Source of the DNA: Pyrinomonadaceae bacterium
GTDB lineage: Bacteria > Acidobacteriota > Blastocatellia > Pyrinomonadales > Pyrinomonadaceae
Length of the DNA stretch: 64,000 nucleotides
Assembly: GCA_014380365.1 (NCBI GenBank)
Contig: JACMJZ010000004.1
Coordinates: forward strand, 124,001 to 188,000
Direction: 5' to 3'
Shown one piece after another: positions 46,573 through 48,612 of this stretch (its first letter is position 1; every line of letters starts with the position of its first letter). The notes beneath the pieces are model-generated. The model was not told the origin of the DNA. It ran no database searches and saw nothing but the letters and a program-made list of their open reading frames with translations. The position numbers and the translations under genes are program-made.

Positions 46573-48612
46573 TTAGACCGCAACTGCTTCTGCGACCTCT
46601 TGCTTCTTGCGGCTTAAGCTTTGGATTTGGACTGGCTTGTCCGTTTCCTTCACATCCAGCTGCTTCTTCAGCACCATCTCCTGATAGAGCTTTCGCATCA
46701 TCACAGCCTCTTCATGTGCAGTCTTGGGACCTTCCATTTCAGGCTTGTTTGGACGCGTAAGATCAATCGGATTCAGCACCAGGTTGTGGGTCTTGTCGTT
46801 GAGTTCCACTTCCTTACCGCGAGCGAAAATCTCGTGGCGCCCATTCTCTTCATACCACTTTGCCACGGTCGCGTTCTGGTGCATGTTCTCGATGATGTTT
46901 CTCCAGCCGATCCCTGTGTTGTAGGCGCAGAAGGAGATTTCACCTTCCTGCGTGCCATAAGGGATGATGCACATCTCTGTGCGGCGGAAGTCGTAGTTGA
47001 AGAGATCCTGAAACCACATGCCGGCGATGAAGAGGAAGTTCCAACGATCCGAACGACGCTTCTCGATGTCAGTCTGCGAACGATCGCCGCCGACTTTGCC
47101 GTAATCCTTGCCGGTCAAACCGAACGATTTGTCAAACTTCTTGAAAAGCTCGTAAAGCGTGAACTGCGATGGCGACTTGTATGGGTTGTAGTGCTTGAGA
47201 AGCGCCAGACCCATCATCAAGTTTGACATCCACTTGCCGCGCGCAGCGTCGGTGATTTTCTGCATGTCCTTCACGAGGCCCGGGATGTTCAGAAACTCAG
47301 GAACTGGCCGCATTTCGCGCGTTTCCTTATCAACCATTACCGCCGTGCCTACGCCACAGTTTGGGTGACAACCGCACGAGACCTGGCCCCATTCGGCCTG
47401 TGGTCCGTGAACCAAATCCGCGAAGTCCGCGAAGGCGCCCATTAGTGAAAGTGGGAACCAGTCGCGCGTCGGCTCAGTGATACCAACTTGATTCTTAACG
47501 TCGTGGGCCAGATGCGAAAGCGTGTAGCGCTGTTGCAGGCGGCGTTGCGGAGTGATCTCTTCGTCGCGTCCGGTAAAAGAAACTGGCTGGAACGAAAGGA
47601 ACGCAATCTTCTTGGGGTTGTCCAACGCGAAACGAACAATCGAACCGACCTGGTCATTGTTGATGCCGTTGACCAGCGTGGTCACGAGCACAATCTCAAC
47701 GCCCGCTTCATGCAGGTTGTTGATTGCGCGCATCTTCACGTCAAATAAATTGCCGACCTGACGATGGCTGTTCGCGTCGTTCCCCACTCCGTCAAACTGG
47801 AGGTAGACATAACGCAAGCCAGCCTCAGCAGCTTCGCGACAGAAGTCTTTGCTCTTGGCAAACTCAATTCCGTTCGTCGCTGCCTGGACGCTGTTATAAC
47901 CAACCTTGCGAGCATACTTAATTGACTCGAGGAAGTGCGGCGAAATCGAAGGCTCGCCTCCCGAGAACTGTACCGACATCTGACGACGCGGCTTGATCGA
48001 AATCGCGTTGTCCAAAATCTCCCTGATGTCTTCCATGCTCAACTCATGAACAAAGCCAACCTGGTTGGCATCCATGAAGCAAGGGTCACACATCATGTTG
48101 CAGCGGTTGGTTAAGTCAACGGTCAAGACCGCGCCGCGGCCATACTTGATCGTGCTGGTGCCGTGGTTGTGCAGCTTCTCGTCGTTGTGCGCGTCGATGT
48201 CGCGACCGGGAAACATCTTTTCGATATGGTTGAGAAACTTGACGTCGACAGCCATCATGTCTTCGAAATGGCCGTGAATTGCGCAATCCTTAACCATCCA
48301 GATTTCGCCATCGCGCTCGATGATCTGGGCCTTGATCTCTCCGACCTTCTCGTTGATTAGAACGCTCACGTCCTGCTTGCCGCTGAGAATCGATTCCCTC
48401 GCCTCAATAACGCAGTTAGGGCAAAGCGAATCTGTGGTGCGCGGCCACCCAAGGGTTGGCTTGCTCTTCTGCCAGGATTTCAGCAGGGGCTTGTCAGACC
48501 ACTTGGGGGTAAACGACGGATTGGGCTTGTACTTGTTAACCGACTGAATAAGGTTATGAATGCCGCCGGCTGCCAAGGTAAGTCCCTTTTCGGCGCGCTT
48601 GATTAATCGCAT
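46573..48612 (-). CDS. Radical SAM enzyme resembling tetraether / membrane-spanning lipid synthase
   Basis: 679 residues. Cluster motifs: C171-x3-C175-x2-C178 (NRCNMMCDPCFMDANQ) for the SAM-bound [4Fe-4S]; FSGGEPS (217-223) as the SAM-binding loop; a CPNC pair at 64-67; C413, C415, C419 in SCGCHPNCG as auxiliary cluster ligands; and FCAYNTGIGWRNI near the C-terminus. This set matches the family of archaeal tetraether synthase Tes, which joins lipid tails by radical C-C coupling. Bacterial homologues (membrane-spanning lipid synthase) are proposed to form iso-diabolic-acid-type lipids, which subdivision 4 Acidobacteria make. The family call is from motifs only; the substrate is inferred from family and taxon. 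A strong terminator follows. It is a single gene between rpsU and the Tad region. Confidence 0.85.
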   Translation of the reverse strand: MRLIKRAEKGLTLAAGGIHNLIQSVNKYKPNPSFTPKWSDKPLLKSWQKSKPTLGWPRTTDSLCPNCVIEARESILSGKQDVSVLINEKVGEIKAQIIERDGEIWMVKDCAIHGHFEDMMAVDVKFLNHIEKMFPGRDIDAHNDEKLHNHGTSTIKYGRGAVLTVDLTNRCNMMCDPCFMDANQVGFVHELSMEDIREILDNAISIKPRRQMSVQFSGGEPSISPHFLESIKYARKVGYNSVQAATNGIEFAKSKDFCREAAEAGLRYVYLQFDGVGNDANSHRQVGNLFDVKMRAINNLHEAGVEIVLVTTLVNGINNDQVGSIVRFALDNPKKIAFLSFQPVSFTGRDEEITPQRRLQQRYTLSHLAHDVKNQVGITEPTRDWFPLSLMGAFADFADLVHGPQAEWGQVSCGCHPNCGVGTAVMVDKETREMRPVPEFLNIPGLVKDMQKITDAARGKWMSNLMMGLALLKHYNPYKSPSQFTLYELFKKFDKSFGLTGKDYGKVGGDRSQTDIEKRRSDRWNFLFIAGMWFQDLFNYDFRRTEMCIIPYGTQEGEISFCAYNTGIGWRNIIENMHQNATVAKWYEENGRHEIFARGKEVELNDKTHNLVLNPIDLTRPNKPEMEGPKTAHEEAVMMRKLYQEMVLKKQLDVKETDKPVQIQSLSRKKQEVAEAVAV

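What the first reader, a model, noticed from the sequence alone, without database searches (positions are those of the whole stretch)
46573..48612. Candidate membrane-spanning lipid synthase (Tes/MSS family) in a bacterium
The C-x3-C-x2-C motif in CNMMCDPCFMDANQ, the CPNC pair, the CGCxxxC auxiliary site and FCAYNTGIGWR near the end together match the radical SAM family that joins isoprenoid or alkyl chains into membrane-spanning lipids. Subdivision 4 Acidobacteria contain iso-diabolic acid. The gene would explain how, and is of interest for the origin of bacterial branched tetraethers.
Basis: partly seen in the sequence, partly recalled or inferred. Interest (0 to 1): 0.75.

Follow-up and report, generated by a model that had tools for sequence, protein, structure and literature searches.

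The report
Acidobacterial Tes-like membrane-spanning lipid synthase
This acidobacterium carries a close structural relative of the archaeal enzyme that joins two lipid tails end to end across the membrane; it belongs to a bacterial branch that has lost one of the archaeal enzyme's iron-sulfur sites, which makes it a good candidate for the maker of a common and poorly explained bacterial membrane lipid.

Summary
The gene (46573-48612, minus, 679 aa) is intact and the motifs are as described. Its best relative by HMM, PDB sequence search and fold is tetraether lipid synthase (Tes/GDGT-MAS): 7tom Z 43.7, next radical SAM enzyme 20.4. The host is a Pyrinomonadaceae-type acidobacterium. It is not a standard Tes: it scores below the Tes equivalog cut-off (320.7 against 450 bits) and sits in an acidobacterial clade (AB). 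In the window protein and 158 of 158 other AB sequences all four ligands of the N-terminal auxiliary [4Fe-4S] cluster are gone; 30 of 30 standard-type acidobacterial Tes keep them. The radical SAM site, C-terminal cluster ligands, labile Met and Tyr are kept. AB occurs in 138 of 297 sampled Acidobacteriota genomes, including groups with published iso-diabolic acid. A second radical SAM gene adjoins it in 13 of 76 class-level genomes and is co-conserved. The genome lacks PlsA/Ger but has an elb-type ether-lipid cluster. Best reading: it joins iso-C15 tails into iso-diabolic acid. Bacterial Tes homologues are already published; I did not find the cluster-less clade or its partner gene described in the papers searched. 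Activity is unproven.

The parts
46573..48612 (-). Tes-like radical SAM protein, 679 aa (type A of the AB clade)
48535..48609 (-). N-terminal helix, residues 2-26, in an extension of 63 residues before the first Cys (8 in MJ0619)
   Evidence: AlphaFold2 model; length comparison
48412..48423 (-). CPNC 64-67, rubredoxin-type metal site, equivalent to MJ0619 C9/C12
   Evidence: mapping; ligand numbers from PMC9433317 passages
48274..48285 (-). C110-x2-H113, second half of the rubredoxin-type site, equivalent to MJ0619 C33/H36; spacer 42 residues instead of 20
48145..48180 (-). EKLHNHGTSTIK: place of the N-terminal auxiliary [4Fe-4S] cluster; MJ0619 C73/C77/C80/H83 are gap/H150/S153/K156 here
48079..48102 (-). 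CNMMCDPC, CX3CX2C radical SAM [4Fe-4S] site (C171, C175, C178)
47356..47376 (-). CGCHPNC: C419 = MJ0619 C338 (C-terminal cluster); C413 specific to the AB clade; C415 shared with 24 of 30 standard-type sequences
47017..47019 (-). M532, equivalent to the labile cluster ligand Met439 of MJ0619
46957..46971 (-). C548 (= C455) and Y552 (= Tyr459)
46900..46932 (-). FCAYNTGIGWR with C562 (= MJ0619 C470)
45244..46056 (-). SurE; next gene downstream, neighbour kept only in part of Pyrinomonadaceae
44517..45206 (-). PCMT (protein-isoaspartate methyltransferase)
43721..44458 (-). VTT-domain (DedA-like) membrane protein

Best explanation
The gene encodes a membrane-spanning lipid synthase that works like archaeal Tes. 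SAM is cleaved at the C171/C175/C178 [4Fe-4S] cluster; the 5'-deoxyadenosyl radical takes an H atom from the terminal methyl of an iso-branched (iso-C15) lipid tail; the carbon radical is parked on the C-terminal [4Fe-4S] cluster (C419, C548, C562, labile M532) as a carbon-sulfur bond; a second activated tail then couples to give iso-diabolic acid, esterified or etherified to two glycerols. Shown here: homology, fold, conserved ligands, phyletic spread. Inferred: substrate, product and mechanism, by transfer from MJ0619 (PMC9433317, passages). It belongs to an acidobacterial clade that does this without the N-terminal auxiliary cluster.
For: Best NCBIfam model is Tes (E 1.4e-95). PDB phmmer 7tol E 1e-61. 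AlphaFold2 model pLDDT 90, pTM 0.89; Foldseek 7tol E 3.3e-35; VIA-align Z 43.7 over 478 residues for 7tom, next entry outside Tes is MoaA at 20.4. All radical SAM and C-cluster ligand positions, Met439 and Tyr459 kept in P0001. AB found in 138 of 297 phylum genomes and 76 of 78 relatives match at E<=1e-40. Named AB carriers include Pyrinomonadaceae, 'Chloracidobacterium', Bryobacteraceae and gp1/gp2/gp4/gp5/gp18/subdivision 13 MAGs. Iso-diabolic acid or ethers of it are reported for Pyrinomonas, Chloracidobacterium, Edaphobacter and Occallatibacter. E. aggregans is reported with one Tes homologue at 32% to archaeal Tes, which fits AB (28-36% to MJ0619) better than the standard type (36-46%), and with 26.4% iso-diabolic acid (column order of that table taken from the strain list). 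AB and standard Tes genes lie 0.7, 3.8 and 6.1 kb apart in 3 of the 12 sampled genomes that hold both. The genome has an elb-type ether-lipid cluster, which fits ether-bound iso-diabolic acid.
Against: No activity is known for any AB protein; a 2025 paper says the activity of bacterial Tes homologues is unconfirmed (PMC11868695, passages). Below the Tes equivalog cut-off. One metal site lost. Mss, a different reported synthase, could be responsible instead. Gene neighbours are not lipid genes.
Confidence: 0.78

Rival explanations
1. It acts on lipid tails but does another radical reaction, for example an intramolecular closure, a cross-link between chains of an already joined lipid (as Gms does) or chain tailoring, and the tail-to-tail coupling is done by Mss or by the standard Tes type.
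For: Clade separated by a long, fully supported branch from standard Tes, lost metal site and new invariant Cys; some genomes hold both AB and standard types (12 of 297) and this genome holds two AB paralogues, so at least one copy may have another job. MA_1114, a second archaeal homologue, made only trace macrocyclic archaeol (PMC8941075 passage).
Against: 126 of the 138 AB carriers have no standard-type Tes over the cut-off, yet the published iso-diabolic acid groups are among the AB groups; the coupling-relevant ligands are all kept.
Confidence: 0.15
2. It is a methyltransferase of hydroxymethylpterin, as the Pfam name of its N-terminal zinc ribbon (HMPTM) and the older annotation of MJ0619 suggest.
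For: PF23545 'HMPTM N-terminal zinc ribbon' matches.
Against: The authors who solved MJ0619 report that they could not corroborate that activity and show lipid coupling (PMC9433317 passages); that acidobacteria lack methanopterin is recalled, not tested.
Confidence: 0.02
3. It modifies a peptide or cofactor, like many radical SAM/SPASM enzymes, and only resembles Tes.
For: Weak hits to NirJ, AhbC, MoaA and RiPP maturases in the core domain.
Against: Those hits cover only the radical SAM core at 29-77 bits, against 320.7 bits over residues 60-579 for Tes; fold match covers 478 residues of Tes.
Confidence: 0.03

Closest known systems
Archaeal Tes / GDGT-MAS (MJ0619, PDB 7tol, 7tom)
   Same: Fold, radical SAM site, rubredoxin-type site, C-terminal cluster ligands with labile Met, conserved Tyr and SAM-pocket residues
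   Different: No N-terminal auxiliary cluster ligands; long N- and C-terminal extensions; 42-residue spacer in the rubredoxin-type site instead of 20; extra Cys413; 30% identity
Standard-type Tes of Acidobacteriota (over the NF045702 cut-off; Koribacter/Solibacter homologues at 40-42% in PMC8941075 probably belong here)
   Same: Same family, same phylum, sometimes neighbouring genes
   Different: Keeps the N-terminal cluster (30 of 30); 36-46% to MJ0619 against 28-36% for AB; separate clade
Paralogue P0002 in the same genome (AB clade, type B)
   Same: Same ligand pattern, 52% identity
   Different: Own clade, shared with families f45, f32 and f20, so an old paralogue rather than a recent copy
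Bacterial Mss (Sahonero-Canavesi et al. 2022, not held; described in PMC13274423)
   Same: Said to couple fatty acyl tails to (iso-)diabolic acid and to share the Tes architecture (passages)
   Different: No sequence at hand; relation to AB not tested

Membership tests
Tes / GDGT-MAS | CX3CX2C radical SAM cluster motif | tested here: met
   C171/C175/C178 align with MJ0619 C98/C102/C105; kept in 158 of 158 other AB rows
Tes / GDGT-MAS | C-terminal [4Fe-4S] cluster: three Cys and labile Met439, with Tyr459 | tested here: met
   C419, C548, C562, M532, Y552; Met, C455 and C470 positions kept in 154 of 158 AB rows (4 gaps), Tyr in 153 of 158. That C338, C455 and C470 are the three Cys ligands is my inference from conservation; the paper passages name only Met439
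Tes / GDGT-MAS | Rubredoxin-type site CX2C...CX2H | tested here: met
   C64, C67, C110, H113; 156-158 of 158 AB rows
Tes / GDGT-MAS | N-terminal auxiliary [4Fe-4S] cluster (C73, C77, C80, His; His83 by conservation) | tested here: not met
   gap/H/S/K in P0001; 0 of 158 other AB rows keep the three Cys; 30 of 30 standard-type rows keep all four
Tes / GDGT-MAS | NCBIfam NF045702 equivalog cut-off of 450 bits | tested here: not met
   320.7 bits; P0002 314.9 bits
Tes / GDGT-MAS | Overall fold | tested here: met
   7tom Z 43.7, rmsd 2.6, 478 aligned; Foldseek TM 0.87 by target length
Tes / GDGT-MAS | Couples terminal sp3 carbons of lipid tails | not testable with these tools
   needs enzyme or mutant
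Mss (bacterial membrane-spanning lipid synthase) | Sequence similarity to a characterised Mss | not tested
   no Mss sequence found; source paper not held
elb ether-lipid cluster (elsewhere in this genome) | elbB (HAD), elbC, elbD (reductase-ligase-ACP-acyltransferase), elbE (NAD epimerase) in order | tested here: met
   L221 genes HAD, LarA-type, 1470-aa multidomain protein, NAD epimerase against the description in PMC9131029 (passages); whether elbC is LarA-type was not checked

The most novel reading that the evidence does not exclude
The AB clade is the phylum-wide iso-diabolic acid synthase of Acidobacteriota: a naturally N-cluster-less Tes, vertically kept, working with a co-conserved second radical SAM enzyme and, in this family, with elb-made ethers. 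It would be a ready source of iso-diabolic acid lipids and brGDGT precursors in soils, and it would show that the N-terminal cluster of Tes, whose role is unknown, is dispensable for tail coupling.
Probability: 0.45. Interest if true: 0.75.

Novelty: new variant of a known kind. Interest (0 to 1): 0.52.

Why it matters
brGDGTs and iso-diabolic acid are used as soil and climate markers, but the enzymes behind them in Acidobacteriota are not proven. Zeng et al. 2022 already proposed bacterial Tes homologues (PMC8941075, passages). What is added here is that these homologues fall into two types that can be told apart by four residues, that the more common type has lost one metal site, that it is nearly universal in the class Blastocatellia sample, and that it has a partner gene. 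That gives a sharper gene marker for screening environmental genomes, natural mutants for the unexplained N-terminal cluster of Tes, and a concrete set of genes (AB, paralogue, partner, elb) to delete or express.

Tried and rejected
Gene neighbourhood of the window gene: SurE, PCMT and the VTT-domain gene are neighbours only in some Pyrinomonadaceae loci and are absent elsewhere, so they say little about function. Idea that paralogue B arose inside Pyrinomonadaceae: rejected, because B sequences from families f45, f32 and f20 group with it. Search for PlsA/Ger (PF09989) as the ether-forming enzyme: none in this genome. TrsS model NF045646 as a way to reach Mss: rings below the cut-off in 13 of 14 control genomes, uninformative. 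Hydroxymethylpterin methyltransferase: see rivals. The partner radical SAM gene could not be assigned to a curated family: best NCBIfam hit PqqE at 75.6 bits against a cut-off of 381; Pfam only Radical_SAM and Fer4_12. VIA-align absence of other folds is not used as evidence. The tree is a quick one (SH-aLRT only) and its program warns of long branches meeting; the root was imposed on the standard-type rows plus MJ0619.

Full report
What is there. The minus-strand ORF 46573-48612 starts with ATG, ends with a stop and encodes 679 aa. In the assembly it lies at G000:C9:170576-172612; the same genome has a second copy, P0002, 52% identical over residues 11-616, at G000:C5:600796-602607. The next hits in the genome are weak radical SAM matches of about 25% identity.

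Family. NCBIfam ranks the Tes model NF045702 first (E 1.4e-95, 320.7 bits, residues 60-579), below its equivalog cut-off of 450; the next, TrsS, has 207.2 bits and covers less. Pfam gives Radical_SAM and the HMPTM zinc ribbon. Among PDB sequences GDGT-MAS (7tol) is first at E 1.1e-61, the next SkfB at 4.7e-7. A 51-row alignment gave an AlphaFold2 model of mean pLDDT 90 and pTM 0.89. Foldseek puts 7tol and 7tom first (E 3.3e-35 and 4.9e-35; next MoaA 1.2e-8), and VIA-align gives 7tom Z 43.7, rmsd 2.6 over 478 residues, against 20.4 for MoaA. So the fold is that of Tes.

Metal sites. The structural paper (PMC9433317; I read passages) gives MJ0619 a rubredoxin-type iron at C9/C12/C33/H36, an N-terminal [4Fe-4S] at C73/C77/C80 plus a His, the radical SAM cluster, and a C-terminal [4Fe-4S] with labile Met439; Met439 and Tyr459 are stated to be fully conserved in 1000 archaeal homologues. 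It says the roles of the remaining metal sites are not clear. I copied the MJ0619 chain from the alignment; its numbering agrees with every residue checked. From all loci then held I took ORFs of 450 aa or more with at least 400 aligned residues (205), removed identical ones (188), and called a row AB if it was at least 45% identical to P0001 or P0002, else standard type (T): 158 AB, 30 T, besides P0001 and MJ0619. Shorter ORFs and fragments were dropped. C73, C77, C80 and H83 are present in 30 of 30 T rows and in none of the 158 AB rows (gap in 158; His in 158; Ser in 157 and Ala in 1; no His at the fourth). The radical SAM cysteines are kept in 158 of 158 AB and 30 of 30 T. C338 is kept in all; C455, C470 and Met439 in 154 of 158 AB (4 gaps) and 30 of 30 T; Tyr459 in 153 of 158 AB and 30 of 30 T. 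The rubredoxin-type ligands are kept in 156-158 of 158 AB. C413 is present in 159 of 159 AB rows including P0001 and is not the common residue in T; C415 is in 158 of 159 AB and 24 of 30 T. AB proteins are longer (median 680 against 542 aa), with a 42-residue spacer in the rubredoxin-type site in 144 of 159 rows against 20 in 29 of 30 T, and a longer C-terminus.

Phylogeny. In a quick maximum-likelihood tree of 76 rows (57 AB, 18 T, MJ0619) AB and T+MJ0619 are separated by a branch of 1.24 changes per site with SH-aLRT 100; MJ0619 falls among T rows. The window protein groups with Pyrinomonadaceae and the rest of its class. P0002 sits in another AB group with rows from f45, f32 and f20. The program warns of long branches and the root is imposed.

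Host and distribution. The best named match, 96% identical, is a MAG called Pyrinomonadaceae bacterium; a 'gp4' MAG matches at 82.8%. In relatives 76 of 78 genomes match P0001 at E<=1e-40. In an even sample of the phylum AB is present in 138 of 297 genomes at E<=1e-130 and standard Tes over its cut-off in 32 of 297; 12 have both, 20 only T, 126 only AB, 139 neither. In three of the 12 (G137, G175, G302) the two genes lie 6.1, 3.8 and 0.7 kb apart.

Link to lipids. Passages read: Pyrinomonas has membrane-spanning iso-diabolic acid and ethers, together up to or above 40% of lipids (PMC4644332); Chloracidobacterium strains have iso-diabolic acid (PMC12816986), and MAGs named Chloracidobacterium carry AB at about 74%; six Edaphobacter strains have 11.8-30.4% (PMC11354219); Occallatibacter and relatives 26.8-49.2% (PMC12935467). 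Zeng et al. report 456 bacterial Tes homologues, one in E. aggregans at 32% identity and others at 40-42% in Koribacter and Solibacter (PMC8941075). By identity to MJ0619, AB is 28.3-35.5% and T 36.4-45.7%, so the E. aggregans gene looks AB and the other two T; this is an inference. It fits poorly with nothing except that Mss was not tested.

Partner gene. A second radical SAM protein of about 340-380 aa lies directly upstream on the same strand in loci from families f2, f4, f7 and f8 (L087 and L130 give identical proteins and count once). From the coordinates the pair is adjacent in 13 of 76 genomes (G048, G050, G054, G055, G058, G059, G063, G067, G069, G070, G072, G073, G074), and also in G245 of family f68 outside the class. 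The gene is in 71 of 76 relatives and 95 of 297 phylum genomes; 92 of these 95 have AB, against 46 AB genomes without it (Fisher P 2e-37, not corrected for phylogeny). In the window's genome it is unlinked, at G000:C7:15233-16156 (L207:7174-8190). Its function is unknown; no curated family fits.

Ether bonds. PF09989 (PlsA/Ger) is absent from the genome, while the same search rings in the T. maritima control. Instead L221 (G000:C20) holds, in order, a HAD protein, a LarA-type protein over its NCBIfam cut-off, a 1470-aa protein with NAD_binding_4, Sterile, AMP-binding, ACP and acyltransferase domains, and an NAD epimerase. This is the content and order given for M. xanthus elbB-elbC-elbD-elbE (PMC9131029, passages), elbC there being of unknown function. 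That several subdivision 4 genomes hold elb is already stated in PMC10087280.

Mechanism. By transfer from MJ0619: H abstraction from the terminal methyl, carbon-sulfur bond on the C-terminal cluster, second activation and coupling. The isopropyl end of iso-C15 tails resembles that of phytanyl, as Zeng et al. note. All residues named for these steps are kept; the lost site is the surface N-terminal cluster.

Novelty. Bacterial Tes homologues, including acidobacterial ones, and their possible role are published. I did not find the split into two types, the lost cluster or the partner gene in the library searched; the key Mss paper and subscription papers were not available, and the supplementary tree of Zeng et al. 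was not seen. Hence 'new variant of a known kind'.

Noticed in passing
L221:6318-14301 (+) (G000:C20:236000-255900): elb-type ether-lipid cluster: HAD, LarA-type (NF052592 over cut-off), ElbD-like 1470 aa, NAD epimerase. The LarA-type gene sits where elbC of unknown function is described.
   Followed up: partly
L207:7174-8190 (-); L091:4310-5461 (+): Co-conserved second radical SAM protein, upstream of the Tes-like gene in other families of the class; no curated family.
   Followed up: partly
L065, L066, L067 (G137, G175, G302, family f15): Standard-type Tes and AB-type gene within 0.7-6.1 kb on one contig.
   Followed up: partly
L002:1429-3399 (+): Paralogue P0002, an old second AB group present in most sampled genomes of the window's family.
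   Followed up: yes
L177: AB gene at about 75% identity in a contig labelled Gemmatimonadetes; transfer or binning error.
   Followed up: no
window 53445-57790 (-): Run of genes that look like a Tad/type II secretion-type cluster (TPR protein and two GspF-like membrane proteins); named from recall, not searched.
   Followed up: no
window 39822-42917 (+): 1031-aa ORF that looks like a carboxypeptidase-regulatory/TonB-dependent outer membrane protein, as common in acidobacteria; named from recall, not searched.
   Followed up: no
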